DNA from: an uncultured Prevotellaceae bacterium
GTDB lineage: Bacteria > Bacteroidota > Bacteroidia > Bacteroidales > Muribaculaceae
Assembly (NCBI GenBank): GCA_947165675.1
Contig: CAMVBJ010000030.1
Location: 1 to 40,833, forward strand
Reading direction: 5' to 3'
Length of the DNA: 40,833 bases
In this document: positions 8,298 to 32,253 of the stretch, piece after piece
Layout of the letters: each line of letters starts with the position of its first letter
Numbering within the stretch: the stretch's first letter is position 1
Made by a program: the position numbers and the translations under genes
Notes under the pieces: generated by a model
Told to the model about the DNA's origin: nothing
Database searches by the model: none
What the model saw: the letters and a program-made list of their open reading frames with translations, nothing else

Positions 8298-9320
8298 TTA
8301 ACGGATTGCCCACCCTGGCTTGAAAAAGGGCTCTTGGGCAGTGAAGCGCGGCGCATAGGTCTTCAACAACGAGATCACAGGCCACATGATGAGCATCGTC
8401 AAGGCAAAAACGATCAATGTCATTGCAATGCCAGGCTCCATACCTCCACGAAGGATGAGCCATGAGCGAATGGGATGGAAGATTACCGTGTGAGTGCCCA
8501 GGATGATGAGCGAGTAACGCCCATAATGACACAGGACAGGAACTCGAGGCAGTGGCTTACATGCCCAGAAGAGCGCCAAGATAGCCACAATGGGCAACAA
8601 GTATAATTTCCAGTAGGCGGGCAAAACCTGAAAGTGAAGGTTCATGAAGTCGCTGAGGTAATAGATGGGGATAGCCACAGCCACCAGGGCCACGATGCCC
8701 CACTTGTCATAGCGCGACGGCGTCAATGCGCCCAATCGTTTCATCCCCCACCCTAACACAAAATAGGGCAACGCCACCAGTGAGGTATCAAACATGAGTG
8801 GCAACTGCACCTTGTTGATACCCAGGTGATAGCCAGCTACCGAAATAGCCACAGTCGCCAGAATCAACCCCCAAACCGGTTTAATCCAATTGTGAAGGAC
8901 ATAGAAGAGCGCGTTTACCCAGAAAAGGCTTAAGAGGAACCACAAGGGTGTAGTAACCTGCCAATACCTCAAGTAGAACGGCTCAATGAGCTTGATGGGA
9001 TTGATATCGATTGACTGCGCACCGATGAGATAACGGACGCCATACTCCAGCAATTGCACTCCATAGGCCAGCACCACAAAAAAAACAAACGGCACAAGGA
9101 TATTATTGACCTTGCGCCGCATAAAATCGGCAAAGCCACTGTAGAGCTTAAAGAAAATGCCTGATATGAAATAATACATGGGCAGGCGGAAAGCCTGCAA
9201 GGCATCGTTCAGATTGGGAGCGAGATAGTTGAAAAACTCATGGTCAATATGGTACATCACAATGAGCATGATGCACAAGCACTTCATGAAGTCAATGTAG
9301 GCTATGCGCTGTTGGGGCAT
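8298..9320 (-). CDS. membrane acyltransferase (acyltransferase 3 family)
   Basis: The 340-residue protein has about ten membrane helices and the acyltransferase-3 opening YIDFMKCLCIMLIVMYHI, where His24 is the conserved residue of this family. FRLPMYYFISG follows, as in OafA/WecH-like proteins. These enzymes move acetyl or other acyl groups across the inner membrane onto surface glycans or lipids. Its gene lies 37 bases downstream of an acyl carrier protein gene and in line with a FkbH/ketosynthase cassette. It is therefore a candidate for the last step, transferring the custom acyl group; that link is inference. Confidence 0.88.
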   Translation of the reverse strand: MPQQRIAYIDFMKCLCIMLIVMYHIDHEFFNYLAPNLNDALQAFRLPMYYFISGIFFKLYSGFADFMRRKVNNILVPFVFFVVLAYGVQLLEYGVRYLIGAQSIDINPIKLIEPFYLRYWQVTTPLWFLLSLFWVNALFYVLHNWIKPVWGLILATVAISVAGYHLGINKVQLPLMFDTSLVALPYFVLGWGMKRLGALTPSRYDKWGIVALVAVAIPIYYLSDFMNLHFQVLPAYWKLYLLPIVAILALFWACKPLPRVPVLCHYGRYSLIILGTHTVIFHPIRSWLILRGGMEPGIAMTLIVFALTMLIMWPVISLLKTYAPRFTAQEPFFKPGWAIR

Positions 9321-9357
9321 TATGGGACCGGTATTGACCGCAAATGGTAAACCTGAT

Positions 9358-9585
9358 TTACTTCACCTTGGCTGCGAGCAGAGCAACCACACGAGAGAAG
9401 TCAGTCATCTCGGCAATCTCCTCGGGCTCCAATTCAATGTCAAAGGCATCCTCAAGTTCAGAAGCCAAAGTGAGATGATGCAGGGAGTCCCAGCGCTCAC
9501 AATTCTTCTGAGACGCATCGGTTGAGATCTCATCCATGTCAAACACCTCGCGCATGATTTCTAACACTTTTTCTTCGATAGTCAT
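9358..9585 (-). CDS. acyl carrier protein (partner of the FkbH-type protein)
   Basis: This 75-residue, acidic, all-helical protein has the phosphopantetheine attachment motif WDSLHHL with Ser34. Its start overlaps the stop of the FkbH-type gene by 4 bases (ATGA), which argues strongly that the two work as a pair. FkbH enzymes load a glyceryl group onto such stand-alone ACPs. It is clearly divergent from housekeeping AcpP (the usual DSLD is replaced by DSLH), as expected for a dedicated carrier. Confidence 0.9.
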   Translation of the reverse strand: MTIEEKVLEIMREVFDMDEISTDASQKNCERWDSLHHLTLASELEDAFDIELEPEEIAEMTDFSRVVALLAAKVK

Positions 9586-11174
9586 AATACTCTGATATTG
9601 TAATAATTCTTGATTTCAAACATATTGCTTAACGCCATGGTGTAATGCTTAGCGCCAGCATCATCGGTATGATCACAGCTCATGCCCATGCGGTCATAAA
9701 AGTCGGCCGTCTGGCCATTCTTGGCCGTTGGCAAGAAGTCCGCCGTAAGTTGACGATAGCCGTCTAACCGCAGCAGGTTGAATATCGTCTTGATGAAAGC
9801 CTCCTCAATACCCTTGCCCAGGATGCGACAACTCAACAGGAGTGAATCGATGTTGATGGTCGTATCATCGACAGGCTCCAGGAAAATTGCAGCTGTAATG
9901 CCGTTATCGCCAAAACGATCACTCACGCTCATGCAATAAACGCGCCACCCCTGATCAAGATGCTGATGGACATCGGCCTCGGTATAACGTCGGGTAGTAA
10001 GGTTAAACTGATTAGTCTTTTGAGTCATCTGGGAGATGCGCGATAGGTTATGCTCGTCGGCTGGAATAATGTCCAGTTGCATATCCAGACTGTATAGATA
10101 GGATTCAAGATCGGCAAAATGGGATTGCTCAGCCTTACGCATCGCATTGGCACGGTACTGTTCGGTCTTGGCTCGATCCTCACTCGTCACCGCGTAGATA
10201 CGGAAGTACTTCTCAACCAGCAGTTTGAAGAACGGCATGAGTTCATAGGGCTTATCTGGGAAGTCGGGGACCTCGACTTGAGGAAGCATCTGCTTAATTA
10301 ATTCGCGTTCGGTGGGATTGTCATCGACAAAGACCATGCTATCAAGTCCGATGTTGAGTTCGGTTGCGATCTCTCGGATGTTAGTCGCCTTGTCCTGCCA
10401 GTTGATGCGCAGGGAGCTGAAGTGTTCACGCTTGAGCACCATGAAGGGGTTTTGCCGCCATGCCTCATCGACATCGGCCTCATTATTCTTGCTGCACACG
10501 GCCAGAATCACACCATTGCGGGCTAACTGGAGAATAGAACGCTGCCAGTAAGAAAAGGCCTTACCAGGATAATCGCCACCCAACTTGATGCCATCAATTC
10601 CATCCTCGCCGAGGACTCCGCCCCACAGGGTATTATCAAGGTCAAGAATTAGACACTTCTTGCGCTGTAAGGCCAATTCGCCCTCAAGGCGCCGCCACCA
10701 TGCGTGGAAATCGCGTGCCAACTTGGGGTTGAGTAACGTCTGAGACAAGAGGTAGTATTTCCAGTTTACCAGTGTGTCGGCATCATAGCGGGATGTAAAC
10801 TCAGTGAAGTCCACCCACTTAACATTGGGATGGGAAACAGCCAGCGCCGATGCATGGTTGTTAAAAGCGGCGATTGCCTGGCCAACAGCGGTCTCATCAC
10901 CCGTGAGCCTCACTGAAAAAAGGTTGACAAGTGAGAAAATGACAAATGGCTTGTTTGAGTCGATGCCAGACAAGACAATGTCCAACTTGTCGCTATAGGA
11001 CTGAATCTCTTGAGCCAACTGAGCGCTATCAGCATTGACGGATACCTGATAGAACCATATATAACGATCCACCTCACTGGGTATCATGCTGATGTCATCA
11101 TAACCCGAGTAGGTCACGTCATCATAGCCCAGAAAGGCTTCAACCGTCTGATTGCGAAAGACAAAAGTAGTCAT
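9582..11174 (-). CDS. FkbH-type HAD-IIIC phosphatase / acyl transferase
   Basis: The 530-residue protein has the three parts of FkbH-like proteins: an N-terminal SGNH-like region (about 1-165), a HAD subfamily IIIC domain and a C-terminal GNAT-like domain (about 360-515). The HAD part shows DLDNT with Asp178 and Asp180, the conserved GGVLGEDG, CSKN at 227-230, and VFVDDNP with the paired Asp at 284-285. In characterised pathways (FK520, tetronates, bryostatin) such enzymes take 1,3-bisphosphoglycerate, remove the phosphate and leave D-glyceryl on an ACP. The partner ACP overlaps its 3' end. No FkbI/FkbK/FkbG-type oxidases or methyltransferase are nearby, so a methoxymalonyl product is unlikely and a glyceryl-type unit more likely (inference). 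Confidence 0.88.
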   Translation of the reverse strand: MTTFVFRNQTVEAFLGYDDVTYSGYDDISMIPSEVDRYIWFYQVSVNADSAQLAQEIQSYSDKLDIVLSGIDSNKPFVIFSLVNLFSVRLTGDETAVGQAIAAFNNHASALAVSHPNVKWVDFTEFTSRYDADTLVNWKYYLLSQTLLNPKLARDFHAWWRRLEGELALQRKKCLILDLDNTLWGGVLGEDGIDGIKLGGDYPGKAFSYWQRSILQLARNGVILAVCSKNNEADVDEAWRQNPFMVLKREHFSSLRINWQDKATNIREIATELNIGLDSMVFVDDNPTERELIKQMLPQVEVPDFPDKPYELMPFFKLLVEKYFRIYAVTSEDRAKTEQYRANAMRKAEQSHFADLESYLYSLDMQLDIIPADEHNLSRISQMTQKTNQFNLTTRRYTEADVHQHLDQGWRVYCMSVSDRFGDNGITAAIFLEPVDDTTINIDSLLLSCRILGKGIEEAFIKTIFNLLRLDGYRQLTADFLPTAKNGQTADFYDRMGMSCDHTDDAGAKHYTMALSNMFEIKNYYNIRVL

Positions 11175-11180
11175 TATTTA

Positions 11181-12191
11181 TTAATTCTTCTTGATCTTGA
11201 GATAGAGCTTACTTAACATCGCCCACAAGCGAGGATGCATCATCAGGCTGTGGATGATTTTCCACTTAGTGCCTCCATAGTTAGCCTCGGGTCCCACACA
11301 CGGAAACGGATATAGACCAGCATCTCGCATGTGGTCCAGCACATCATCTACTATGCCCGCAGTAAACGCACGAGTCAATGCAAAGAAGAGATAAACGTTT
11401 CTCAATCCAGCCACGCTGGCTGGGGCATCCTGTCGATTGTCGTGCTGAAATCTCTTGATAGTCCCATCAATAATCGAGGCAGAGTCAATCTGACTATATA
11501 ACCTTTTCCTCAAGTGGTTAAGGCCAGGATTGTGCATGGCACTATCCGAACGGTTGACGTAGCAATAGATTGCGGCTTCGTCATGAGCCACGCGGGCTGC
11601 ACTGAGCATAAACTCGGCAATAAGTGCACCATCCTCGCACACAATCAGTGACGGATTGAATCGCCACTGATTACGCTCAAGAAAATCACGCTTGACAAGA
11701 TACCGCCAGATGTAAGGAGTCATGCTGTGTCCATCAAGGTACTCGACCCCGGTCATCACCCCAGTCGAGGCACTGAAAGCCTCGGTGGCTAACTTTACGA
11801 CACCGTCAGGTGTAGCCTTACGGTTGTTCAACACCATGACATCAAGATCCTCACTTACAGCCCGGCGTAACAACGAAGCCATCGTCTGCCCCATCAGATA
11901 GTCGTCACTATCCACAAACTGCAGATAACGGCCACGGGCGTGTTCCAGAGCCAAGTTGCGAGCCGCACTCACACCTGCATTAACCTGAGTAAGCAACATG
12001 ACTTGGGAATGCTCACGAGCAAAACCCTCAACCACAGCACGGCTACCATCGGTCGAGCCATCGTCAATAACAATCACCTCATACTGGTCGGGTGATAAAT
12101 CTTGATCGACAATGGATTGCAAACACTTGAGCACATAAGTCTCGGTGTTGTACAGGGGAATGATGTATGTCAAGAGTAGATCACTCATCAA
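11181..12191 (-). CDS. family 2 glycosyltransferase
   Basis: This 336-residue protein opens with LTYIIPLYN, then VIDDGSTDGS and FVDSDDYL, the nucleotide-sugar and metal (DxD) motifs of inverting GT-A glycosyltransferases of family GT2. It transfers an unidentified sugar in the cytoplasm. The start overlaps the stop of the VOC gene by 4 bases and the FkbH-type gene follows after 6 bases. It is thus embedded in the acyl-group cassette, the best sign that the cassette serves a glycan. A second ATG lies one codon inside and cannot be excluded. Confidence 0.9.
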   Translation of the reverse strand: MMSDLLLTYIIPLYNTETYVLKCLQSIVDQDLSPDQYEVIVIDDGSTDGSRAVVEGFAREHSQVMLLTQVNAGVSAARNLALEHARGRYLQFVDSDDYLMGQTMASLLRRAVSEDLDVMVLNNRKATPDGVVKLATEAFSASTGVMTGVEYLDGHSMTPYIWRYLVKRDFLERNQWRFNPSLIVCEDGALIAEFMLSAARVAHDEAAIYCYVNRSDSAMHNPGLNHLRKRLYSQIDSASIIDGTIKRFQHDNRQDAPASVAGLRNVYLFFALTRAFTAGIVDDVLDHMRDAGLYPFPCVGPEANYGGTKWKIIHSLMMHPRLWAMLSKLYLKIKKN

Positions 12192-12613
12192 GAGAGATTC
12201 TCGACCAGTTCGATGAGGCCGGTGTTCTTCTGGAACAAGAATGCCACGCGCCTGTCATCCATGGCGCAAGCTGGAACAGGACCACTCACGAGCAAAAACC
12301 GTTGTCCACGCAGCATGGCAATGGCGGCCTCTATATCCTGCACCTGATAGCAGATGTGATAAGGAGAGACACCAACGGCACTGAGAGTGCGCAAGACCGG
12401 GCTCTGATCATCCAGGGGTTCAAGCAATTCAAGACGGGGTTCACCGTCCTTAGACAAGAAACAAATGCGGACATGCTGAATCGCATCGTCAACGGTGGCC
12501 GTAGCCTCATAACCCATCGTCAGATAGAAACCCTTGGTCTTCTCGATATCACGACAAGCTATACCGATGTGGTCAAAGGTCAGCATGGGAATCTTCTGGG
12601 ATTGATAATTCAA
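12188..12613 (-). CDS. VOC-fold protein, methylmalonyl-CoA epimerase-like
   Basis: This 141-residue protein has the paired beta-alpha-beta-beta-beta modules of the vicinal oxygen chelate superfamily. Probable metal ligands are His15 (DHIG), Glu62 (RLELLEP), His86 (YHICY) and Glu135 (LIELVE). The order and the closing GLIELVE resemble methylmalonyl-CoA epimerase more than glyoxalase I. Four-base overlaps with both neighbours (ketosynthase III and GT2) show tight coupling. No methylmalonyl-CoA mutase or decarboxylase is present here. Epimerising the alpha carbon of an ACP- or CoA-bound intermediate is a reasonable guess, not a demonstrated role. An internal ATG at residue 10 is an alternative start, but the overlap favours the longer form. 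Confidence 0.8.
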   Translation of the reverse strand: MNYQSQKIPMLTFDHIGIACRDIEKTKGFYLTMGYEATATVDDAIQHVRICFLSKDGEPRLELLEPLDDQSPVLRTLSAVGVSPYHICYQVQDIEAAIAMLRGQRFLLVSGPVPACAMDDRRVAFLFQKNTGLIELVENLS

Positions 12614-13659
12614 TATTCAATGACTGGAGAGACGCTGCAGTCACGCATGTTCATGATGGCTGAGCCCCAACTCAAGCCAGCTCCAAAACCGCTCATCAGT
12701 ACGATATTGTCGCCCTCGAGACGACCGCTCAATTCGCTGGAGATGGTCAATGGCACAGAGGCGCTGCTGGTGTTTCCATACTTGTGGATGCAGTATGGCA
12801 CCTTGTCTGGAGAAATCTTGAGCTTCTTGACAAAAAAGTCCATCATGAAGCGATTGGCCTGGTGGAACACCAAGAAATCCAAATCCTCGACCGTTCGCTC
12901 GGTCTCCTTGAGAAGCTGCTTCACACTCTTGGGCACCTTGCTAATGGCAAAGTTGAAGACATCCATACCATCCATAAACACTTCCAGGTCGGTACGGATG
13001 TTACCATCCTCGCGCTCACGCTCCACACAGGAGTCTGCCGTGACGGGATTACGCATTCCTGCAAATATCTTCAAGGTATCCTCACCACTGCCATCGGTAT
13101 TGAGGATAAAGGTAGCGTCACCATAGTCACCTTTCTCGATAAGTGTCGCCGTTCCTGCATCGCCATACAGGGGCCAATCCACCTTATCGCGACGGTTGAC
13201 AATCTTGGAAAACGTCTCACCATCAAGCAGAAGCACGCGGTTGATGCCCTCCATCGAGGCATAAGCAAACGCTGCACTCAAGGCAAACAAGTAGCCCGAA
13301 CAGCCCAAGGATATATCAAAGCACAAAGTGTCACGAGACAAGCCCAATCGATGCTGCAACAGGCAAGAAGTTGCGGGGATGCGATAATCAGCAGTCTGAC
13401 TCATGAACAATAACACATCAATGCTCTCGGGCTCGATGCTATTGTCGGCAAACAACTGCTTGGCTGCCTTGAAACTCAAGTCACTTGCTGTCACATCGGG
13501 GGCGGCAATGCGTCGCTGCTCAATGCCGATGTTGTTAATCGTTTTCTCAATCTCCTCTTGAGGAATGAGATAACCCAGGTCCTTGTTATATACAATTTCC
13601 TGAGGGACACAAGACGAAATAGCCTTGATGCCCACACCATGATAAGTAATTCTTGCCAT
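12610..13659 (-). CDS. 3-oxoacyl-ACP synthase III-like condensing enzyme
   Basis: This 349-residue protein has the complete FabH/KAS III triad: Cys120 in SLGCSGYLFAL, His266 in FLVFHQANR and Asn296 in KYGNTSSASVP. KAS III enzymes condense a CoA-bound acyl primer with malonyl-ACP; homologues in tetronate pathways and some glycan loci use other partners. It follows a stand-alone ACP gene by 49 bases and overlaps the VOC gene by 4. A housekeeping fabH is normally found with plsX/rpmF, which are absent, so I read this as a specialised paralogue. Its exact primer cannot be read from sequence. Confidence 0.9.
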   Translation of the reverse strand: MARITYHGVGIKAISSCVPQEIVYNKDLGYLIPQEEIEKTINNIGIEQRRIAAPDVTASDLSFKAAKQLFADNSIEPESIDVLLFMSQTADYRIPATSCLLQHRLGLSRDTLCFDISLGCSGYLFALSAAFAYASMEGINRVLLLDGETFSKIVNRRDKVDWPLYGDAGTATLIEKGDYGDATFILNTDGSGEDTLKIFAGMRNPVTADSCVEREREDGNIRTDLEVFMDGMDVFNFAISKVPKSVKQLLKETERTVEDLDFLVFHQANRFMMDFFVKKLKISPDKVPYCIHKYGNTSSASVPLTISSELSGRLEGDNIVLMSGFGAGLSWGSAIMNMRDCSVSPVIEY

Positions 13660-13708
13660 ACATTAAATTGCTTGAGGACCCGAGAAAACTTTTTGCCTCA
13701 CCAACGCA

Positions 13709-13942
13709 TCACTCGGCTCGTGATTGCACGATTTTAAACAAATCCTCAACGGTATTGCTGCTGCGAATGTCTTCTCCTCGAAATTCCACATCATACTCCT
13801 CGTCAATCATCGCGATTACTGACAAGGCAAGAAGTGAAGACCACTCCTCCAAGTCCTTAAACTGAGTGGTTGCATTTATGGTATCGGGATCTGTCTCATC
13901 GAACAGCTCCGTAAAATTCTCGATGAATTGATCTATGCTCAT
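13709..13942 (-). CDS. acyl carrier protein (first gene of the acyl cassette)
   Basis: The 77-residue acidic helical protein carries LEEWSSLLAL, in which Ser36 aligns with the phosphopantetheine-bearing serine of DSL motifs. The Asp normally before that Ser is replaced by Ser, marking it as divergent from AcpP and from the second ACP at 9.4 kb. It is the first gene after the promoter near 14.03 kb and lies 49 bases before the ketosynthase III gene, its likely partner. Confidence 0.85.
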   Translation of the reverse strand: MSIDQFIENFTELFDETDPDTINATTQFKDLEEWSSLLALSVIAMIDEEYDVEFRGEDIRSSNTVEDLFKIVQSRAE

Positions 13943-14141: not shown

Positions 14142-14783
14142 TCAAAAATTGAATCGACGCGCAGGCACTCCCAAATAGGTCTTGTTGTTGCGTGGCTGAG
14201 TCATGAGCACGCTGTTAGCTCCTAACGTCACTCCATCACCGATGGTGATTCCCTGAAGCACAACACAGGCAACTCCCAGCATGTTGTTATTGCCGACAGT
14301 CACCCCTCCAGACAAGTGGGCTCCTGGCATAATGTCGTTAAAACTGCCAATGCGATTATCATGCCCCACCACCACATGGTCATTGATGAGATTGAAATCG
14401 CCGAGGGAAACATCACAGGAAATCATACAGTCGTTCTGGATAATATTTCCCTCACCCATGACCACGGTCACGGGATCGACCATGAAGAGAGTCGGGTCAA
14501 TCAGATTGGGGAAAGTGACATTTGGGTTGGTGATAGCCTTGCGAAGGCGCCGCACAGCCTTGTTGTCACTGATAGCAATGGCCACGGCAAGTGGTTCATC
14601 AACCTGCAACAGTGTCTCCATGCCTCCAAGCACCTTGCCATATCTTGACACCAGCGAACCTGCTGGTTTGCCATCATCAAAGAAGCCTATCAATTCCCAC
14701 TGTTGTTGTTGGGCATTTATTCTGGTTATGAGACAGGCAACTTCTTTTCCGAAGCCTCCTGCACCGTATATAGCAATTCTCAT
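14142..14783 (-). CDS. PglD/NeuD-type sugar O/N-acyltransferase
   Basis: The 213-residue protein has an N-terminal Rossmann-like PglD domain (IYGAGGFGKEVA, then FFDDG) and a C-terminal left-handed beta-helix of hexapeptide repeats. His141 in VVGHDNRIG is in the place of the catalytic His of PglD. The second helix-coil His of PglD (acetyl-CoA contact) is an Asn here. PglD acetylates the 4-amino group of UDP-4-amino sugars. The aminotransferase gene immediately upstream (44 bases) fits this. The frame extends 19 codons upstream but the family begins at MRIAIYGAGG, so I use 14783. The second half of the fused protein at 17656-18930 is a close paralogue, about half identical by eye. Confidence 0.87.
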   Translation of the reverse strand: MRIAIYGAGGFGKEVACLITRINAQQQQWELIGFFDDGKPAGSLVSRYGKVLGGMETLLQVDEPLAVAIAISDNKAVRRLRKAITNPNVTFPNLIDPTLFMVDPVTVVMGEGNIIQNDCMISCDVSLGDFNLINDHVVVGHDNRIGSFNDIMPGAHLSGGVTVGNNNMLGVACVVLQGITIGDGVTLGANSVLMTQPRNNKTYLGVPARRFNF

Positions 14784-14827
14784 GGCTTGACTCTTTACAC
14801 TAAAAAATCCGCAACATATTGTGCTGC

Positions 14828-15967
14828 TCACTTGCAACACGAGATAATCTCGCGAGCCACTTTTTCAACATGCTCATCGCTCACCCATGGTCCGCTGGGC
14901 AAACAGAGTCCCTTGGAAAATAAGTTTTCACTCACGCCATTGACATAGGCAGGTGCCCCTGAGAACACGGGTTGGGTATGCATGGGTTTCCACAAGGGGC
15001 GGGATTCGATATTGCATGCATCCAGGTGCTGGCGCACTGTTTCATAATCGGTACCAGTCTTGACGGGGTCAATGAGAATCGTGTTGAGCCAGTAATTGCT
15101 ATCGGAGCGCTCATCGCAATTGACATGAACGTCAATACCATCAACATCTGCCAATAACTCGACATATCGGTCACACAGGTGCTTGTGGTGAGCCAGATGG
15201 TCATCAAGAACGGTCATCTGACCACGACCGATACCAGCACAGATGTTACTCATGCGGTAGTTGTAACCTATCTCCTTGTGCAGGTAGTAAGGCATGGGCT
15301 CACGCGCTTGAGTGGCATAGAACATGATCTTCTTCTTGGTCTGCTCGTCAGGACAAATGAGAGCGCCACCTCCGCTGGTGGTAATCATCTTGTTGCCATT
15401 GAAGCTCATGATGCCATATTCGCCAAACGTGCCACAAAGCTGGCCACGGTAACGAGAACCGAATGCCTCGGCTGAATCCTCAATGACGGGTATCTCGTAA
15501 CGGCGCGCAATCTCCATAATATCGTCGATCTTGCCTGGCATACCATAGAGATAGACCGGGATGATGGCCTTGGGCTTGCGACCGGTTTTGGCCACGCGGT
15601 CCTTGATAGCATCCTCGAGTAGATTGGGATCCATATTCCACGTGTCGGGTTCGCTATCGACAAAGACTGGTATGCCCCCTTGATAGGTAATGGGATTAGC
15701 ACTGGCCGAGAATGTCATCGACTGGCAGATCACTTCATCATCCCGCCCCACCCCGAGGTTGACAAGTGCCAAGTGTATGGCTGCCGTGCCTGCACTGAGT
15801 GCGACAACCTTCTTGTTCTCGCCACACAATTGTTCGAGGTCTTCCTCAAAGGCATTCACATTAGGACCCAGTGGAACCACCCAGTTGGTGTCAAAAGCTT
15901 CCTGTATATACTTCATCTCTTGACCACTCATGTGGGCGAGACATAATAGGATTCTATCGTTTGCCAT
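14828..15967 (-). CDS. DegT/DnrJ/EryC1/StrS-type sugar aminotransferase
   Basis: The 379-residue PLP enzyme shows the family path: SAGTAAIHLAL (57-67), VIEDSAEAFGSRYRG with Asp164, and SFNGNKMITTSGGGAL with the PLP-binding Lys193. The order and the N-terminal WVVPLGPNV resemble PglE/PseC-like enzymes that aminate the 4-keto position of UDP-4-keto-6-deoxy sugars. It precedes a PglD-like acyltransferase gene, recreating the PglE-PglD pair of bacillosamine synthesis. The 4,6-dehydratase (PglF) that would supply its substrate is not in the window. Exact sugar specificity cannot be read. Confidence 0.92.
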   Translation of the reverse strand: MANDRILLCLAHMSGQEMKYIQEAFDTNWVVPLGPNVNAFEEDLEQLCGENKKVVALSAGTAAIHLALVNLGVGRDDEVICQSMTFSASANPITYQGGIPVFVDSEPDTWNMDPNLLEDAIKDRVAKTGRKPKAIIPVYLYGMPGKIDDIMEIARRYEIPVIEDSAEAFGSRYRGQLCGTFGEYGIMSFNGNKMITTSGGGALICPDEQTKKKIMFYATQAREPMPYYLHKEIGYNYRMSNICAGIGRGQMTVLDDHLAHHKHLCDRYVELLADVDGIDVHVNCDERSDSNYWLNTILIDPVKTGTDYETVRQHLDACNIESRPLWKPMHTQPVFSGAPAYVNGVSENLFSKGLCLPSGPWVSDEHVEKVAREIISCCK

Positions 15968-15991: not shown

Positions 15992-16579
15992 TTATATGAT
16001 TTCTAAACTTTCAGGTGCATGACCTGGATAGACGGTTCGATGATCGGCTAACCGCTTGATTATGGACTCACTGTTTACCGCCTGTGGTTTGTTGGAGTGA
16101 GGGACATTTGTCACGGTCTTGACACCAGGAATGTAACTGTCGCCCGTAAACATCATGTCGTCGAGAACCCACGTCACGCTACAGGGGCTGTGCCCAGGTG
16201 TGAAAACGGCCTGTACGCTAATGCCGTCGAAGAGTTCAACCCTCTCTCCATCATGCACGATTTTAATGTTATTAACGGGCTGAAGTTGGATGCTATTGCC
16301 GTAGAACTTCGAAAAATTTAATTTATCGTTATATAAGGTCTCAAAGCCTTCTTCATTAGTATAGATGGTCACGTCTGGGTAAAGGCTCAGCAGCTGATTG
16401 AGTCCATAGATATGGTCAAAGTGGCCATGGGTGAGCAGAACACCGCACAACGTTCCCTCGATGAGTGGCATGATTTTATCCACATCACCGCAGTCCACCA
16501 GCCACGAACGTTCCGCCTGTGACAAGATGTAGCTACAGGAGCGAAAAACGGAATTGACGACCTGGTTGACGACCATCAA
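15992..16579 (-). CDS. metallo-beta-lactamase-fold hydrolase
   Basis: This 195-residue protein has the dinuclear-metal motif THGHFDH at 50-56 (HxHxDH complete), His130 in TPGHSP, Asp147 in TGDSY and His187 in YPGH. This is the full ligand set of glyoxalase II-like hydrolases. Such enzymes cleave thioesters or related bonds. Sitting between a short-chain dehydrogenase (12 bases) and a sugar aminotransferase (24 bases), it could release an acyl thioester or edit carrier-bound intermediates. That is inference. Confidence 0.88.
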   Translation of the reverse strand: MMVVNQVVNSVFRSCSYILSQAERSWLVDCGDVDKIMPLIEGTLCGVLLTHGHFDHIYGLNQLLSLYPDVTIYTNEEGFETLYNDKLNFSKFYGNSIQLQPVNNIKIVHDGERVELFDGISVQAVFTPGHSPCSVTWVLDDMMFTGDSYIPGVKTVTNVPHSNKPQAVNSESIIKRLADHRTVYPGHAPESLEII

Positions 16580-16591
16580 TCAATGGGTGTA

Positions 16592-17344
16592 TTACAACGA
16601 AAAGCCACCGTCAAGCACAAGGTCGTGACCCGTCATCCAACTTGATGCGTCGCTCAACAAGTAGATAGCGGTATTGGCCACATCGGTGGGCTCACCATAG
16701 CGGCCCAGGGGGTAACGCTTGGCATCCTCGGCAAGCTGTTCCTCGGTAATCGTGCCATCGTGAATCAGCGGCGTGTTGACCATACCGGGACAGATGCTGT
16801 TGACACGCACATTGCGGGTGGCATACTCACGGGCGGCATACCTCATGACAGAGTTCAAGGCAGCCTTGGATGCGCCATAGACACCATTGCCAGGCATGAA
16901 ACTGTGGGTTCCACCGATAGACGCAATCAAGACAACCGACGCGCCCTTGACAAGCACTTTTTTCTTATACATTAAGCGCAGCAACTCGACCGGGGCAAAG
17001 AAGTTGATGTTGAACATGCTGTCCAGCTTCTCGCGGGTACCAAATTGCAGTGGCACGGTCATCGAATTGCCAGCGCACAGCACAGCACCATCCAGTTTAG
17101 GCATCTCACCAACGAGACGCTCGATGTCCTGCTGCACAGTCATGTCGGCAATCAGCTGCATGTGTCCATCGACTTCAGGATTGAGTTGGTCAAGTGTTGT
17201 CTGCAAGCGCTCTTGATTGCGGGCGGTGATGACAAGTCGTGCCCCCATGCGAGAACAAGCGATGGCGGTTTCACGGCCGATTCCTGATGATGCGCCTGTG
17301 ACCAGAATGGTCTTACCCGATAACGAAAAAGGATTATATTCCAT
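16592..17344 (-). CDS. short-chain dehydrogenase/reductase, FabG-like
   Basis: This 250-residue SDR has the cofactor loop TGASSGIG at 16-23, an LCAG variant of the NNAG motif, and the catalytic residues Ser142, Tyr156 and Lys160 (YGASK). It ends in the typical GHDLVLDGGF. It is closest in layout to 3-oxoacyl-ACP reductases, which would fit reduction of the product of the ketosynthase III encoded 3.3 kb downstream. Sugar or other oxo substrates are equally possible. It is the first gene of the 14.1-17.3 kb group; no exact TAnnTTTG element is visible in front, only a repeat-rich non-coding stretch. Confidence 0.9.
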   Translation of the reverse strand: MEYNPFSLSGKTILVTGASSGIGRETAIACSRMGARLVITARNQERLQTTLDQLNPEVDGHMQLIADMTVQQDIERLVGEMPKLDGAVLCAGNSMTVPLQFGTREKLDSMFNINFFAPVELLRLMYKKKVLVKGASVVLIASIGGTHSFMPGNGVYGASKAALNSVMRYAAREYATRNVRVNSICPGMVNTPLIHDGTITEEQLAEDAKRYPLGRYGEPTDVANTAIYLLSDASSWMTGHDLVLDGGFSL

Positions 17345-17655: not shown

Positions 17656-18930
17656 TTATTCAAAATCAAATCTCTTGGCTGGCACACCGATATAGGTATG
17701 GCCATCTTTAGGTTTGGTCATGAGCACACTGCCAGCTCCCAAGGTAACAGAACTGCCCACCTTTACCTTCTGCAAAACAACGCTATCAACACCGAACAGG
17801 TTACAACAACCCACTTCGACGGCACCCGAGAGACGCACGGCAGGCATGAGGACATTGAAGTCCCCCACCACCACATCGTGGCCCAGTACATTGGACCCGT
17901 TCAACACATTGAAATCCCCCACAGTGACGTCACACGTGGCGCTACAGCCCTCTTGGATAATATTACCGCGCCCTATCTTGAATGTCTCTGGATCCAAAAT
18001 CCTGAACGACGGAGCAATAATATTCGGAAAATAGATATTCGGATTAGTAATCCGCTGAAAAATTTGATGACGGACATTTGGATCACCAATGGCAATCGCC
18101 AAGGCAAGCGGTTTATCAACTGCATTGAGTTCCTCCATACCTCCTAAGACCTTACCATAGTGCGAAACGTCAGTTCCTGCGTCCTTATTGTCATCGTAGA
18201 AGCCAACAAATTCCCATCTTTCCTTACCAGATTGATTAATCTTTGCAATACCACCAGCAACTTCACGACCCAGTCCACCAGCGCCATAGACTGCAATTTG
18301 ATTTGGTGTAACGATTGAGATACCAGCTTGTGAATAGGAGCAATCCTGCCGGTAACGTATGCGACAAGGATTGCCGTAAGCAACCGCACCGTCGGGGACA
18401 TCATGGACCACGACACTGCCAGCTCCGACAATGCTCCATTTGCCAATTTTCACACCAGGGATTACGACCGAGGCCGCTCCGATCCAAGCGCCCTCACCCA
18501 CATGGACATTACCACACAAGGTTGCTTGGGGTGAAATATGGGCAAAATCCTCGATGATGCACTCATGATCGATCGACGCCCCAGTATTCAGGATACAATG
18601 AGAACCCACAGTGGCACCACTCTGTATAATCGCCCCCTGCATTACGACAGTTCCCTTACCCATTCTGACATTCGGCGAAATGACCGCTGACGGATGTCGA
18701 ACAGTAGCAAAGTCGCAATTAAGAAGTTTATCTACTATCTGTTTGCGGGCAATATTATTACCTATGCTCACAATGATCGGCGACTCTCCGCACCATTGAT
18801 GCTTAACAGGAATTGATAGCAGTTCATTGATTGCCTCGTCATCATCAAACAAAGCATCAACCTTTATATTAAGGGCTTTAAGGATATCGATGATAACCTT
18901 AGCGTGCCCGCTTGCTCCGTATAGATACAT
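17656..18930 (-). CDS. tandem fusion of two PglD/NeuD-type acyltransferases
   Basis: The 424-residue protein contains two complete acyltransferase modules. Module 1 (1-205) has YGASGHAKV at 4-12 and a hexapeptide helix with the PglD-like His122 (IDHEC) and second His131. Module 2 (211-424) restarts with a new nucleotide-sugar-binding motif, YGAGGLGREVA, and has His351 in VLGHDVVVG, but Asn359 where module 1 has its second His. Module 2 is a close paralogue of the free-standing protein at 14142-14783. Family members are usually 200-220 residues, so this is a true double. It follows the PglC-like transferase gene by 3 bases, as in PglC-PglD arrangements. It may acylate two positions or two sugars. 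Confidence 0.9.
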   Translation of the reverse strand: MYLYGASGHAKVIIDILKALNIKVDALFDDDEAINELLSIPVKHQWCGESPIIVSIGNNIARKQIVDKLLNCDFATVRHPSAVISPNVRMGKGTVVMQGAIIQSGATVGSHCILNTGASIDHECIIEDFAHISPQATLCGNVHVGEGAWIGAASVVIPGVKIGKWSIVGAGSVVVHDVPDGAVAYGNPCRIRYRQDCSYSQAGISIVTPNQIAVYGAGGLGREVAGGIAKINQSGKERWEFVGFYDDNKDAGTDVSHYGKVLGGMEELNAVDKPLALAIAIGDPNVRHQIFQRITNPNIYFPNIIAPSFRILDPETFKIGRGNIIQEGCSATCDVTVGDFNVLNGSNVLGHDVVVGDFNVLMPAVRLSGAVEVGCCNLFGVDSVVLQKVKVGSSVTLGAGSVLMTKPKDGHTYIGVPAKRFDFE

Positions 18931-18933
18931 AAA

Positions 18934-19551
18934 TCAGTTATTTCCGTTAAATGCTTCCATTGTTGCTTGCCCGTCCTGGGAGATGCCATCGCGGACAATT
19001 ACTTTCTTAATCGTGGTGAAAATCACCTCTAAATCGGTCTTGAAGCTGCAATGATCCACATACCACACATCCAGCTTGAACTTCTCACTCCATGACAAGG
19101 AGTTGCGACCATGGCATTGAGCCCAGCCCGATATGCCTGGTCTCACCTCATGACGACGCGCCTGCTCGGGTGAATAAAGCGGCAGATACTGAACCAACAA
19201 GGGCCTCGGGCCTATAATGGCCATGTCACCCTTGAGCACATTGAAGAGTTGGGGCAACTCGTCTATACTCGTTGAACGTACAAAGCGCCCTACTCGGGTC
19301 AATCGCTCGGCATCTGGCAGGAGTTCACCATTAGCATCGCGCTCATCGGTCATGGTCTTGTACTTAATGATCTTGAATATCTTGCCATCCTTGCCTGGGC
19401 GATCTTGGAAGAAGAATGCGCCTGCGCCCTTGTTAGCGAAATGAAGCCAAATGGTCACCACAAGCAGCAATGGTGACAAGCATATAATTGCAACGAGTGA
19501 GATGATAAATCCCAGAACTCGCTTAATATAGTCACGATAAACCTTCATCAA
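18934..19551 (-). CDS. PglC-like initiating phosphoglycosyl transferase
   Basis: The 205-residue protein is a monotopic phosphoglycosyl transferase. It has one re-entrant hydrophobic segment (about 12-36), then DRPGKDGKIF, SIDELPQLFN with the catalytic Asp97-Glu98 pair, GDMAIIGPRPL and RPGISGWAQ. It moves a phospho-sugar from a UDP-sugar to undecaprenyl phosphate and so starts repeat-unit assembly at the inner membrane. Its short PglC size, without the extra N-terminal helices of WcaJ/WbaP, together with adjacent PglD- and PglE-type genes, suggests UDP-diNAc-bacillosamine or a similar amino sugar as substrate. A second ATG lies at codon 2. Confidence 0.93.
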   Translation of the reverse strand: MMKVYRDYIKRVLGFIISLVAIICLSPLLLVVTIWLHFANKGAGAFFFQDRPGKDGKIFKIIKYKTMTDERDANGELLPDAERLTRVGRFVRSTSIDELPQLFNVLKGDMAIIGPRPLLVQYLPLYSPEQARRHEVRPGISGWAQCHGRNSLSWSEKFKLDVWYVDHCSFKTDLEVIFTTIKKVIVRDGISQDGQATMEAFNGNN

Positions 19552-26154: not shown

Positions 26155-27162
26155 TTATAGTTTAAGCAAGAATGCTAATGGCGTGTGACGAATGGCCTCG
26201 GATACTGCCGCCGAGGCAACGGTATATAGTAATGCAATGACGATTGCAACAACTGGATGTACAGTCAACTCATTGAGTTCAGGGAAAATCCAACCGAGCA
26301 CAATCATCAAGATCAAATGAAATATATAGATACCCAAGGCATTGTTGGCGAGAAACGAGATGAAACGCTTGAACCCGTTCACACTGGTATCATAATCCTT
26401 GATGAGCAAGAAAAGAGCCATCGAAAGGAACAATGCGCCAAATGTGGGGAAACAGTAATTGCCGCCCTCAAACTGCATGTGAGTGGCATTAACCGTAGCT
26501 ATCACCTCAAGGATAAGCAATGCCAGACCTGCTAACGCTAAAGCAATCACGGTCCATTTCTTGGCTCGATAAACTTTAATCAAATCGCCCATGTAGAGAT
26601 ACACCACGCCATAAAGGGTAAATGCTCCCGTTCGCCAACAAATCATAGTCGTGTCTGGGTTCTGTAACAAGACTAAATCCCAACCAAGATTGGTTGCAAA
26701 AGGACATGCCAACAAGACTCCCACAAGCACCCAACGGCACCAATTGGGCAAATGGTCCATAGCGAAACTGATCAGATACATCAAGGCCAATGAAAACAAG
26801 AACCAATAATAGCCCAGTGCTGAAATAGAAAATGCTGCCATGTCATGGTTACTCATAGCCTTGAGACACATGATCACCACGCCCCAAACGGTACCGGCAA
26901 GAATTAATCTGCCTGCCTTTGAAACGGATTTTCTCAGATCGTAGTGCCTACTAACAGTGAGTGCACCGTTCACCATGAAGAACAAAGGAACACCGCAAGC
27001 ACAAAAGAGCCAGAGCACCTGAGAGATAGTTGGATAGTAGAAAATGCCTTCCTGGTAGCCAAAATCCACCATTCCGACGTGATAGAGTACGACAAAGAAG
27101 GCAGCAAGTGCCTTTAACACGTCATAGCCAAATATGCGTTGTTTACCCAGTGATTCCATCAT
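26155..27162 (-). CDS. membrane acyltransferase (WecH/OafA-like)
   Basis: The chosen start at 27162 (MMESLGKQ) gives 335 residues with about ten membrane helices. His28 in VLYHVG is the acyltransferase-3 hallmark, followed by PLFFMVNGAL. It likely O-acetylates the growing or finished polysaccharide at the inner membrane. The start lies one base after the stop of the preceding glycosyltransferase gene. The frame runs 21 codons further upstream, but that would overlap the previous gene and is not family-like. Confidence 0.88.
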   Translation of the reverse strand: MMESLGKQRIFGYDVLKALAAFFVVLYHVGMVDFGYQEGIFYYPTISQVLWLFCACGVPLFFMVNGALTVSRHYDLRKSVSKAGRLILAGTVWGVVIMCLKAMSNHDMAAFSISALGYYWFLFSLALMYLISFAMDHLPNWCRWVLVGVLLACPFATNLGWDLVLLQNPDTTMICWRTGAFTLYGVVYLYMGDLIKVYRAKKWTVIALALAGLALLILEVIATVNATHMQFEGGNYCFPTFGALFLSMALFLLIKDYDTSVNGFKRFISFLANNALGIYIFHLILMIVLGWIFPELNELTVHPVVAIVIALLYTVASAAVSEAIRHTPLAFLLKL

Positions 27163-27163
27163 T

Positions 27164-28087
27164 TCACAGCGTGTATCGCGACAAACAACGGGCCAGGAAG
27201 TAACTCCTTGAAACCATAAAAGCATACAGGCTCATCTTCAGGGAGGATATACCCGTCTTGGAAATTAGATGCCCATAACGTCGCACAACTTCTTGCAGCA
27301 GTTTCACACTTGTATCGCGTTTATATCCGCTCAAGGCTGCAGCTCGAAGTATCTGAGTCATTTCGCAAGCAAACCTGGCATAAACTATGTCATGGTATTC
27401 AGGCCGTGACTCATCGACATCACGACAGATGGAATCCCAGACAGTGTAGGACGAAAATTTCTTGCCGTTAAATGATTGCCTCGACAAGCTGTTCATGTTT
27501 TCGCGATAGTGGTAAAATGACTTATCAAGCACACACACGCTCTTGACGCGCTGCAACACTTGCCAGATCATCAAGGCATCCTCGCCAAAACTCACTGTAC
27601 TATCGAATGACAAGCCATCAAAAAGCGACCGCCTAATCAACTTGTCACACATGGATCCCCTGAAAGTGGTGTGTTCCAGAAACAGTTTAATGATCTGTTC
27701 TCTATCATACACATCCCTTTTTTCGGTTGACACTCCTGATAATTTATAGGAAACAATATCATAATCCCCATCAGGCTGTGCGCTAACTAACGACTCAACC
27801 GTATTGAGCTCAATCCAGTCGTCACTATCGACAAACAGCACCCATTCTCCTCTCGCCTTATCTAACAAGAGATTGCGCGTCATGGCTACACCACCATTGG
27901 TCTTTCCATATACCTCAATGCGCTTATCTTCACGCGCCAATTCCTGTAAAATATCCCACGAATTGTCGGTCGATCCATCATTGATAAGAACAATCTGAAG
28001 GTCACTATAGGTCTGGCCCGTGAGAGAATGCACGCATTCTTTCAGATAAGGTCCCGTGTTATATACTGGTACGAGGATTGATACCAT
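27164..28087 (-). CDS. family 2 glycosyltransferase
   Basis: The 307-residue product begins MVSILVPVYN at 28087, the usual GT2 start; an extension of 12 codons upstream overlaps the previous gene. Motifs LINDGSTDNS and FVDSDDWIE are the nucleotide and DxD sites. It adds an unidentified sugar during repeat-unit assembly. It lies 8 bases after the preceding glycosyltransferase gene and ends one base before the acyltransferase start. Confidence 0.9.
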   Translation of the reverse strand: MVSILVPVYNTGPYLKECVHSLTGQTYSDLQIVLINDGSTDNSWDILQELAREDKRIEVYGKTNGGVAMTRNLLLDKARGEWVLFVDSDDWIELNTVESLVSAQPDGDYDIVSYKLSGVSTEKRDVYDREQIIKLFLEHTTFRGSMCDKLIRRSLFDGLSFDSTVSFGEDALMIWQVLQRVKSVCVLDKSFYHYRENMNSLSRQSFNGKKFSSYTVWDSICRDVDESRPEYHDIVYARFACEMTQILRAAALSGYKRDTSVKLLQEVVRRYGHLISKTGISSLKMSLYAFMVSRSYFLARCLSRYTL

Positions 28088-29342: not shown

Positions 29343-30038
29343 TCACACAAGCTTAACAGCGACACTCCAGTCCTGATAGTTATCGATCTCTATAGGACGG
29401 AATATCCTCTTATCGAGTAGCATTGCATAGATGATATGAGACAGATACAGTGGCGAATAATCTTTAAGGCGATCAAAATAGTCACAAAATTCATCTGCAT
29501 CCTCGAAGCAATAACCACCTGCGCTGAAGAAATGGCTTACCACGCGTTTCTCAATGATATTCGTTACATAAAACATATCATCAACAGCTACATAGCTCTT
29601 GTGTTGAGGATCAACAATCGGTAAATTCTCAAGTGCATATATAGCCACACCATTTTGTGGTAATATCTCATCAGTTGAGAAATAACAGTCAGCATCTTTA
29701 ACAAATACGATGCCTTTTATACCGTTCATGCGAATCGCACAGGCAACTGTTTCGGCTTGCGATGAAGTGTGGTGGTCAAGTATTGTAACGTGCGCATTTT
29801 TAAGGTTGTGTTTGCGGAACTGCATAGCGAGTTGTTCACTAAGCATGAAACGCTCTTCATGATCACGTAGTATCACAAAGTATATATCTTTAATTTCCTC
29901 CATGGGTAGGCCAGTAATAGCCTTTACACAGAACATTGTTCCTTCATCATCAAATCGAAATGGCTGTGGCAATTTCTTGACGTAATCAGAATGGTCTGCT
30001 GCTATAGGCACTATAAGAGTCATCATCATTTTATGCAT
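29343..30038 (-). CDS. nucleotidyltransferase-like protein with degenerate nucleotide loop
   Basis: I do not recognise a named family. The 231-residue protein looks like a GT-A/nucleotidyltransferase fold: the start VPIAADHSDYVKKLPQPF aligns with the IMPMAGEGSRF...PKP loop of the enzyme encoded 1.5 kb upstream, and VKDADCYF (Asp115, Asp117) is in the metal-site position. TSSQAETVACAI resembles the segment after the nucleotide site. However, the essential Gly-rich loop and its Arg are missing, so catalysis may be lost or changed. It overlaps the kinase gene by 8 bases from the 30038 start; a start at 30029 (MMMTL) is equally possible. Confidence 0.7.
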   Translation of the reverse strand: MHKMMMTLIVPIAADHSDYVKKLPQPFRFDDEGTMFCVKAITGLPMEEIKDIYFVILRDHEERFMLSEQLAMQFRKHNLKNAHVTILDHHTSSQAETVACAIRMNGIKGIVFVKDADCYFSTDEILPQNGVAIYALENLPIVDPQHKSYVAVDDMFYVTNIIEKRVVSHFFSAGGYCFEDADEFCDYFDRLKDYSPLYLSHIIYAMLLDKRIFRPIEIDNYQDWSVAVKLV

Positions 30039-30915: not shown

Positions 30916-30935
30916 GTTAAAAAAATTCGAGGTAA

Positions 30936-31490: not shown

Positions 31491-31496
31491 TGCAAT

Positions 31497-32234: not shown

Positions 32235-32253
32235 TCGTATAATTATCTGGGTT

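What the first reader, a model, noticed from the sequence alone, without database searches (positions are those of the whole stretch)
8298..13942. FkbH / ketosynthase III / two-ACP / VOC cassette inside a glycan locus
Seen: seven tightly packed genes in the order ACP, KAS III (Cys120-His266-Asn296), VOC epimerase-like, GT2, FkbH-type HAD-GNAT, second ACP and membrane acyltransferase, with 4-base overlaps at four junctions if each adjacent pair is counted where visible (KAS-VOC, VOC-GT2, FkbH-ACP) and small gaps elsewhere. Known: FkbH enzymes make glyceryl-ACP from 1,3-bisphosphoglycerate, and FkbH plus FabH-like plus ACP is the core of tetronate synthesis. Inference: here the same core, without polyketide megasynthases, may build a short unusual acyl group (glycerate-derived or extended by one condensation) that is put on a surface sugar. 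I do not know a described pathway with exactly this gene set.
Basis: partly seen in the sequence, partly recalled or inferred. Interest (0 to 1): 0.82.

Follow-up and report, generated by a model that had tools for sequence, protein, structure and literature searches.

The report
Glycerate-primed acyl cassette for surface sugars
A gut-type bacterium carries a compact gene set that probably builds an unusual small acid from a sugar-breakdown intermediate on carrier proteins and hangs it on a surface sugar, a new mix of two partly known routes that predicts a specific, testable sugar decoration.

Summary
The genes are real: ACP, KAS III, VOC, GT2, FkbH, second ACP and membrane acyltransferase lie at 8298-13942, minus strand. 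The unit is larger than reported: a FabG-like reductase (16592-17344), an MBL protein, a DegT aminotransferase and a PglD-type acyltransferase belong to it. In 80 relatives a frequent order is PglD-ACP1-reductase-KAS III-(VOC)-FkbH-ACP2. Two halves are separable. ACP1/reductase/KAS III/PglD matches the sugar N-acyl pathway predicted in Flavobacterium psychrophilum and supported by a reductase mutant in Pseudomonas syringae. VOC/FkbH/ACP2 also occurs without KAS III; the VOC tracks FkbH, not KAS III. FkbH-adjacent KAS IIIs form one clade (44 of 45). Within it the residue at E. coli FabH Phe87, the documented primer-specificity position, is Ile in 48 of 48 VOC-linked rows and 0 of 16 VOC-less rows (3 of 3 supported independent contrasts, too few for significance; one pair outside the clade does not follow). 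Best reading: FkbH makes glyceryl-ACP2, the VOC changes it (probably C2 epimerisation), KAS III extends it once, the reductase reduces it, PglD puts the polyhydroxy-acyl on an amino sugar. Separate glyceroyl and 3-hydroxyacyl groups remain the main rival. No product was measured.

The parts
16592..17344 (-). SDR / FabG-like reductase; beta-keto reduction step (inferred)
   Evidence: adh_short_C2 187.5 bits; FabG models among the hits, below their cut-offs; 45-50% identical to reductases near KAS III in L037, L038, L046, L055
15992..16579 (-). MBL-fold hydrolase of unknown role (thioesterase-like?)
   Evidence: Lactamase_B 60.8 bits; recurs beside the cassette in the closest relatives and after ACP2 in L085, L089, L095, L103
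14828..15967 (-). DegT aminotransferase, LegC/PglE-like: makes the 4-amino sugar (inferred)
   Evidence: DegT 306.9 bits; TIGR04181 362.6 bits, under its cut-off of 420
14142..14840 (-). PglD/NeuD-type left-handed beta-helix acyltransferase: candidate enzyme that puts the acyl on the amino sugar
   Evidence: PglD_N and Hexapep; TIGR03570 160.6 bits, just under the cut-off of 160.8; PglD-type gene near the cassette in 52 of 63 KAS III loci
13709..13942 (-). ACP1, W-S-S-L type, carrier of the KAS III/reductase branch (inferred)
   Evidence: PP-binding; Ser36 invariant in an alignment of 7 ACP1 and 7 ACP2
12610..13659 (-). KAS III; Ile94, Gly119, Phe150, Tyr165 at the E. coli FabH positions 87, 111, 142, 157
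   Evidence: separate from the housekeeping FabH at G000:C12
12188..12613 (-). VOC protein of an FkbH-linked subfamily (candidate glyceryl-ACP epimerase)
   Evidence: AF2 model pLDDT 94, best PDB fold 3hdp
11181..12191 (-). GT2 glycosyltransferase, inserted between VOC and FkbH in the closest relatives
   Evidence: Glycos_transf_2 100 bits; VOC-GT2 neighbours in 24 and GT2-FkbH in 26 of 80 loci
9582..11174 (-). FkbH-type HAD-IIIC + GNAT enzyme, candidate glyceryl-ACP2 synthase
   Evidence: TIGR01686 297.5 bits; D178, D180, S228, K262, D284 and S448-C449-R450 invariant in 29 aligned sequences, window included; AF2/Foldseek: 3slr (27% id), then GNAT folds
9358..9585 (-). ACP2, W-D-S-L/M type, partner of FkbH
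   Evidence: PP-binding; an ACP directly after FkbH in 77 of 80 loci; W-D-S-L or W-D-S-M in 69 of these 77
8298..9320 (-). Acyl_transf_3 membrane acyltransferase; probably a separate O-acylation
   Evidence: 101 bits; found only in part of the relatives
17656..19551 (-). LbH/PglD_N protein (17656-18930) and Bac_transf initiating sugar-phosphate transferase (18934-19551)
   Evidence: Bac_transf-PglD stands upstream of the module in part of the relatives (15 of 63 KAS III loci have Bac_transf near)

Best explanation
The cassette builds one short polyhydroxylated acyl group on two dedicated carrier proteins and attaches it to the amino group of a 4-amino-4,6-dideoxy sugar of a surface polysaccharide. 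Steps: (1) FkbH takes 1,3-bisphosphoglycerate and loads a D-glyceryl group on ACP2 (inferred from family knowledge). (2) The VOC protein changes that glyceryl-ACP2, most likely by epimerising C2 through a metal-bound enediolate (inferred). (3) KAS III uses the glyceryl group as primer and condenses it with malonyl carried on ACP1 (inferred; supported by the residue pattern). (4) The FabG-like reductase reduces the keto group. The expected product is a 3,4,5-trihydroxypentanoyl-ACP1. (5) The PglD-type acyltransferase moves it onto the amino sugar made by the DegT aminotransferase. Shown here: gene content, conserved order, the VOC-FkbH link, the clade of FkbH-linked KAS III, and the match of the primer-specificity residue with VOC presence inside that clade. 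All chemistry is inferred.
For: The module PglD-ACP1-SDR-KAS III-(VOC)-FkbH-ACP2 recurs among 80 loci, mainly Bacteroidales, with single loci titled Fibrobacter, Treponema, Sedimentibacter and others. 46 of 80 have both VOC and KAS III just upstream of FkbH, 17 KAS III only, 11 VOC only, 6 neither (L077 was miscalled, so 47 and 16). VOC in 0 of 16 fetched KAS III loci without FkbH. FkbH-adjacent KAS III: 44 of 45 tree rows in one clade (100/99), sister to 8 FkbH-less rows. Position Ec87 is Ile in 48 of 48 VOC-linked rows and in 0 of 16 VOC-less rows of the clade; of 134 columns at least 95% conserved in the VOC-linked rows, only Ec87 and Ec111 (next to the catalytic Cys) differ in all four VOC-less rows that sit among VOC-linked ones. 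Independent contrasts: Ec87 goes with VOC in 3 of 3 supported pairs. Phe87 is the known primer-specificity residue of E. coli FabH (PMC3734052, passages). Of 21 single-KAS loci with enough flank, 16 hold exactly one PglD-type acyltransferase, as one acyl product would need. F. psychrophilum precedent for ACP/KAS/reductase/PglD.
Against: Three contrasts cannot reach significance (sign test p 0.25); the column scan was made after the pattern was seen; and L086, one of the VOC-less rows among VOC-linked ones, is a long branch whose place is unsure. Ile at Ec87 is not unique to this clade (3 of 24 FkbH-less and 3 of 32 other rows). Outside the clade, the sister pair L184 (VOC) and L186 (no VOC) has identical residues at Ec87 and Ec111. 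A planned out-of-sample test gave no new FkbH-linked case. VOC-FkbH-ACP2 occurs without KAS III in 11 of 80 loci, so glyceryl can be used without extension. In the window four genes stand between the reductase and KAS III. No structure of this polysaccharide is known to me.
Confidence: 0.45

Rival explanations
1. Two parallel acyl groups. ACP1, KAS III and the reductase make a 3-hydroxyacyl group from acetyl-CoA, as in P. syringae, while FkbH, VOC and ACP2 make a glyceroyl group that another acyltransferase puts on a different position.
For: Each half occurs without the other. Both kinds of N-acyl are known in bacterial polysaccharides: 3-hydroxybutanoyl, and D-glyceroyl on QuiNAc4N of Pragia fontium (PMC10609480, passages). 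The window has two LbH/PglD-type proteins and three Acyl_transf_3 genes.
Against: 16 of 21 well-flanked single-KAS loci hold one PglD-type acyltransferase only. FkbH-linked KAS IIIs form their own clade, and inside it the primer-specificity residue follows VOC presence, which separate pathways would not predict.
Confidence: 0.3
2. The VOC acts on the extender unit (a methylmalonyl-type substrate), so KAS III makes a branched 3-hydroxyacyl; FkbH supplies something else.
For: The VOC is closest in sequence and fold to Clostridium acetobutylicum 3hdp/2qh0 and then methylmalonyl-CoA epimerases.
Against: The VOC tracks FkbH and is absent from 16 of 16 fetched FkbH-less KAS III loci. It differs at conserved sites (Asp43, Cys88, Tyr89) from 15 VOCs of related genomes that lie away from FkbH. 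The covarying residue is a primer-specificity position.
Confidence: 0.1
3. A tetronate-like small molecule: KAS III joins glyceryl-ACP with a beta-keto acyl chain and releases a lactone, as in tetronate biosynthesis.
For: [quoted passage not shown]
Against: No polyketide synthase among the 30 window proteins scanned with Pfam. 65 of 80 related loci carry at least one of the sugar-gene labels used. Homologues of the acyltransferase and dehydratase partners of that operon were not tested for directly.
Confidence: 0.06

Closest known systems
Flavobacterium psychrophilum O-antigen R-group genes wfpC-G (PMC6519341)
   Same: ACP (wfpD), KAS genes (wfpC, wfpE), keto-reductase (wfpF) and PglD-homologue acyltransferase (wfpG) with genes for UDP-Qui2NAc4N; product 3,5-dihydroxyhexanoyl amide by NMR; gene roles predicted there
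   Different: No FkbH, second FkbH-type ACP or VOC is mentioned in the passages read; the primer there would be acetyl (my inference) and two KAS proteins are used
Pseudomonas syringae viosamine island vioS, vioR, acp, vioB (PMC3927599)
   Same: KAS III, keto-reductase, ACP and LbH acyltransferase for the N-(3-hydroxybutanoyl) group of a 4-amino-4,6-dideoxy sugar; the vioR mutant lacks modified viosamine
   Different: No FkbH or VOC among the seven genes listed in the passages read
Campylobacter jejuni flagellar glycan locus, cj1301-cj1302 (PMC7099621) and di-O-methylglyceroyl pseudaminic acid (PMC3068675)
   Same: FkbH-domain gene cj1302 and cj1301, annotated as an epimerase, in a glycan locus of a species whose flagellin carries an N-glyceroyl-type group
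   Different: No passage that I read links cj1302 to that group; the nearby fabH2 and acpP genes are recalled, not looked up; no sequence comparison could be made
Tetronate glycerate-utilisation operon (Mad7/Mad8/Mad16 and kin, PMC7489565)
   Same: FkbH-like enzyme, stand-alone ACP and FabH-like protein
   Different: There the FabH-like protein forms a tetronate ring and releases a polyketide; here no polyketide synthase was found and there are ACP1, reductase, VOC and PglD

Membership tests
FkbH glyceryl-ACP synthase family (TIGR01686) | score over curated cut-off with HAD motifs | tested here: met
   297.5 bits against 146.65; HAD residues and S-C-R motif invariant in 29 aligned sequences
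[quoted passage not shown]
   needs an assay; the specificity could also be for another C3 unit
Type II R-group pathway of sugar N-acylation (wfpC-G, vioS/R/B type) | KAS III with Cys-His-Asn | tested here: met
   C120, H266, N296; conserved in 65 of 65 FkbH-adjacent KAS III
Type II R-group pathway of sugar N-acylation (wfpC-G, vioS/R/B type) | keto-reductase, dedicated ACP and PglD-type acyltransferase in the same gene run | tested here: met
   16592-17344, 13709-13942, 14142-14840
Type II R-group pathway of sugar N-acylation (wfpC-G, vioS/R/B type) | acyl amide on a 4-amino sugar | not testable with these tools
   DegT LegC-like aminotransferase present; a Polysacc_synt_2 protein of 667 aa is elsewhere in the genome; no glycan structure
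Tetronate glycerate-utilisation operon | polyketide chain to be released as tetronate | tested here: not met
   no PKS domain in the 30 window proteins scanned with Pfam
Methoxymalonyl-ACP pathway | two dehydrogenases and an O-methyltransferase with FkbH and ACP | tested here: not met
   no acyl-CoA or hydroxyacyl-CoA dehydrogenase and no methyltransferase hit among the 30 window proteins scanned
Methylmalonyl-CoA epimerase (TIGR03081) | score over curated cut-off | tested here: not met
   66.9 bits against 114.95
Methylmalonyl-CoA epimerase (TIGR03081) | His/Glu/His/Glu residues at the metal site of the fold (site recalled) | tested here: met
   H15, E62, H86, E135 invariant in 36 aligned VOCs, window included; 15 VOCs away from FkbH share them, so this does not tell the two apart

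The most novel reading that the evidence does not exclude
A previously undescribed branch of sugar decoration in which a KAS III is primed by a glyceryl group made from a glycolytic intermediate and stereochemically edited on its carrier protein by a VOC-fold glyceryl-ACP epimerase, giving a trihydroxypentanoyl amide on a surface sugar; the KAS III primer pocket has co-evolved with the epimerase.
Probability: 0.33. Interest if true: 0.75.

Novelty: new variant of a known kind. Interest (0 to 1): 0.56.

Why it matters
If true, it joins two pathways that have been treated apart, glyceryl-ACP supply known from polyketides and type II acyl-chain building known from O-antigens, and names a new class of N-acyl sugar, an undescribed epimerase activity and a residue (Ec87/Ec111 of KAS III) that predicts the primer from sequence. 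The window's own gene order is shared by 25 of the 80 related loci, and a VOC-less form lies in a Bacteroides fragilis chromosome (L095), so it bears on surface antigen diversity of gut bacteria. It also suggests a source for glyceroyl groups reported on Campylobacter flagellin and Pragia O-antigen.

Tried and rejected
1. Glyoxalase-I-like metal set as a mark of the FkbH-linked VOC: I expected Gln at the place of E62 in true epimerases (recalled). Rejected: the 15 VOCs away from FkbH also have Glu there.

2. Membrane acyltransferase AT3 as the enzyme that attaches the special acyl: not favoured, because it is missing from 38 of 63 KAS III/FkbH loci while PglD is in 52.

3. Out-of-sample test of the Ec87/VOC rule. 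The prediction was noted in the same turn as the draw (note), before regions were fetched. The order draw of 393 genomes gave 9 hits, the window's own among them. Two look like contigs already held (L230 as L105, L231 as L103, by equal contig length and gene order). The other six (L232-L237) showed no FkbH beside KAS III; in L232, whose KAS III has the VOC-less residues Gln and Ala, and in L234 the contig ends soon after. A draw of 194 genomes in the order of L130 gave only L130's own genome. So the rule is untested outside the first set.

4. Named C. jejuni proteins could not be compared: no search reached them. Seven FkbH-bearing viral contigs and plasmid hits were listed but not studied.

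5. Paper searches. FkbH with glycan and acyl carrier protein: 0 papers; with O-antigen and acyl carrier protein: 0; with polysaccharide: 3, of which one (C. jejuni) is relevant by title. The library is open-access only. Seven papers were opened, all as passages found by terms (searches are eight such look-ups of eight papers, of which PMC3958885 is not used further).
Full report
WHAT IS THERE. The window is a whole contig (G000:C30, 40,833 bases) of a 3.12 Mb genome that is 98% complete. The record titles of the nearest relatives (Prevotellaceae, Muribaculaceae, Bacteroidales MAGs, many from rumen) suggest a gut or rumen Bacteroidales species; the organism itself is not named to me. From about 34.3 kb down to 8.3 kb the genes run on the minus strand and form a polysaccharide locus: GT2, pyruvyltransferase-like protein, nucleotidyltransferase, HAD, APH-like kinase, more glycosyltransferases, an EpsG-like protein, an initiating Bac_transf, LbH proteins, and then the cassette. 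All seven genes of the finding are present. The same run also holds a FabG-like SDR (16592-17344), an MBL protein (15992-16579), a DegT/LegC-like aminotransferase (14828-15967) and a PglD/NeuD-type acyltransferase (14142-14840), with gaps of 12, 24, -13 and 199 bases between successive genes down to ACP1. The genome has one FkbH match and a separate housekeeping FabH on another contig (354 bits, over its cut-off; the cassette enzyme scores 220.6, under it). FkbH rings in 0 of 14 well-known control genomes.

HOW CONSERVED. I annotated all 80 with profiles grown from the window genes. FkbH is followed directly by an ACP in 77; a VOC lies within three genes upstream in 57 and a KAS III within four genes upstream in 63; both in 46, KAS III only in 17, VOC only in 11, neither in 6. 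One of the 17, L077, does have a VOC that my ORF caller missed, making 47 and 16. A frequent order outside the closest relatives is PglD-ACP1-SDR-KAS III-(VOC)-FkbH-ACP2, at times with Bac_transf in front and DegT or MBL behind; in the 25 closest-order relatives a GT2 stands between VOC and FkbH and, in most of them, AT3 follows ACP2. At least one of the labels GT2, GT4, Bac_transf, EpsG or DegT is found in 65 of 80 loci; the other 15 include short contigs. The labels rest on home-made profiles, so they are approximate.

HOW COMMON. In a draw of 59 genomes of the same family, 5 had an FkbH match (the window's own among them), 4 over the cut-off. In a draw of 395 genomes of the phylum, 33 had a match and 28 were over the cut-off, again the own genome included. 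I fetched 27 of the 32 other loci (L172-L198). A VOC stands within two genes of FkbH in 4 of 27 (L172, L180, L182, L184); a KAS III is near in 4 (L176, L184, L186, L190); all three are together in one, L184. In L194 my profile did not call FkbH. So FkbH is mostly in other settings in the phylum, and the full cassette was met mainly in the gut and rumen MAGs, a sample chosen for likeness to the window.

TWO SEPARABLE HALVES. A phylum draw for the KAS III itself gave 25 of 296 genomes, the window's own included. I fetched 16 of the 24 other loci, the better-scoring ones (L037-L052). These 16 have no FkbH and no VOC in the 14-20 kb held, and most carry ACP1, SDR and PglD. Two of the eight not fetched then (G323, G263) came back as FkbH loci L176 and L186. 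In contrast, 11 of the 80 FkbH loci have a VOC without a KAS III near. The VOC therefore goes with FkbH. The VOC of FkbH loci is its own kind: the 36 aligned ones, window included, share His15, Asp43, Gln46, Glu62, His86, Cys88, Tyr89 and Glu135; 7 further FkbH-adjacent ones keep Asp43 and Cys88, one of them (L172) departing at two other sites; the 15 VOCs found away from FkbH have Val-Ala-Phe or, once, Val-Ala-Ile at 43/88/89. One more VOC-like protein near an FkbH, in L194, keeps Asp43 but lacks His86. The AlphaFold2 model of the window VOC (pLDDT 94) is closest to Clostridium acetobutylicum 3hdp/2qh0 and then, but for a Bacillus protein, to methylmalonyl-CoA epimerases. Epimerases of this fold move a proton at the carbon next to a thioester (recalled), which is the chemistry that epimerising glyceryl-ACP would need; this step is inference.

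KAS III AND THE PRIMER. I aligned 121 KAS III proteins with E. coli FabH taken from NC_000913. The catalytic Cys, His and Asn are present in 65 of 65 FkbH-adjacent ones. In a tree of 76 rows, 44 of 45 FkbH-adjacent rows and one further FkbH-linked row (L124) form a clade with support 100/99, sister to 8 rows from FkbH-less loci; the 45th (L190) groups with E. coli FabH on long branches. Inside the clade the residue at E. coli position 87 (window Ile94) is Ile in 48 of 48 VOC-linked rows and Gln (12), Ser (3) or Met (1) in 16 VOC-less rows; position 111 (window Gly119, just before the catalytic Cys) is Gly in 96% and Ala in 16 of 16. Of 134 columns at least 95% conserved in the VOC-linked rows only these two differ in all four VOC-less rows that lie among VOC-linked ones (L086, L095, L100, L130). 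Tyr165 (Ec157) and Phe150 (Ec142) follow less strictly. With these four columns masked, the tree needs four changes of VOC state; on supported branches there are three independent pairs and position 87 goes the same way in all three, position 111 in two, with p of 0.25 and 0.5, which cannot be significant with so few; L086 is a long branch whose place is unsure. A whole-genome search of 17 genomes, VOC-less by my annotation, found only weak VOC matches (41-48 bits) in those of L086, L095 and L100, and an FkbH-linked VOC near another FkbH in that of L122. PMC3734052 (passages) states that Phe87 of E. coli FabH sets its preference for acetyl-CoA and that a smaller residue there goes with longer primers. 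So the residue that follows the VOC is one that is known to choose the primer. The simplest reading is that this KAS III takes the FkbH/VOC product as its primer. Against it: L184 and L186, a close pair outside the clade with and without VOC, have the same residues; Ile at Ec87 also occurs in 3 of 24 FkbH-less and 3 of 32 other rows; and the scan of columns was made after seeing the pattern.

THE FkbH AND THE CARRIERS. FkbH scores 297.5 bits against TIGR01686. In 29 aligned sequences the HAD residues and a Ser-Cys-Arg motif in the GNAT part are invariant. The best PDB relative is 3slr (BF1531 of B. fragilis), followed in the fold search by GNAT acetyltransferases; the model has mean pLDDT 87.6 but pTM 0.53, so the domain arrangement is uncertain. 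ACP1 and ACP2 are two kinds, 22% identical in the window, with the same invariant carrier serine.

WHERE THE ACYL GOES. A PglD-type gene is near in 52 of 63 KAS III/FkbH loci; AT3 in 25, never without PglD; neither in 11. Of 21 single-KAS loci with at least six genes upstream and five downstream, 16 have one PglD-type gene, 3 have two and 2 none. In F. psychrophilum the PglD homologue WfpG is predicted to move 3,5-dihydroxyhexanoyl from ACP WfpD to UDP-Qui2NAc4N, with two KAS (WfpC, WfpE) and a reductase (WfpF) (PMC6519341, passages). In P. syringae the vioR (reductase) mutant lost the N-(3-hydroxybutanoyl) viosamine (PMC3927599, passages). Glyceroyl amides are known: D-glyceroyl on QuiNAc4N in Pragia fontium (PMC10609480, passages) and 2,3-di-O-methylglyceroyl on pseudaminic acid in C. 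jejuni (PMC3068675, passages), whose locus has FkbH-domain gene cj1302 and cj1301, annotated as an epimerase (PMC7099621, one passage).

VERDICT. The finding is real and somewhat larger than reported. Its halves are known kinds; their fusion, the FkbH-linked VOC and the KAS III residue pattern are, as far as the searches show, not described in the open-access library. I rate it a new variant of a known kind. The order of steps, the product and the stereochemistry are predictions.

Noticed in passing
L058:122-4406 and the same place in other close relatives (e.g. L060, L074, L077): Upstream of the cassette these relatives carry an extra module: two ACPs, an AMP-binding ligase (498 aa in L058), a second KAS III and a sugar-transfer-associated ATP-grasp protein (the Pfam scan was made on L058 only). 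The window and L057 have a plain SDR there instead. A third acyl branch may have been lost or gained.
   Followed up: partly
L047:11040-12128: A Rieske oxygenase lies between the reductase and a second KAS III in an FkbH-less KAS III locus, hinting at a hydroxylated acyl group.
   Followed up: no
window 30031-33324: APH-like kinase, HAD, nucleotidyltransferase and polysaccharide pyruvyltransferase-like genes in a row, perhaps for a phospho-substituent on the glycan.
   Followed up: no
window 36296-40717: 1473-aa leucine-rich-repeat protein beside the glycan locus.
   Followed up: no
window 26155-27225 and 34940-35980: Two more Acyl_transf_3 membrane acyltransferases in the locus.
   Followed up: no
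L184 and L186: A diverged KAS III pair (Ile/Ala/Leu/His at Ec87/111/142/157) in the order ACP1-KAS III-SDR-(VOC or SDR)-ACP-FkbH, a second lineage of FkbH with KAS III.
   Followed up: partly
NZ_OY725812.1 and NZ_OY725780.1 (Parabacteroides distasonis plasmid records): KAS III relatives with an SDR or an ACP annotated under the match on plasmids, so such modules may be mobile.
   Followed up: no
L239-L245: Seven viral-collection contigs encode FkbH-like HAD-IIIC proteins.
   Followed up: no
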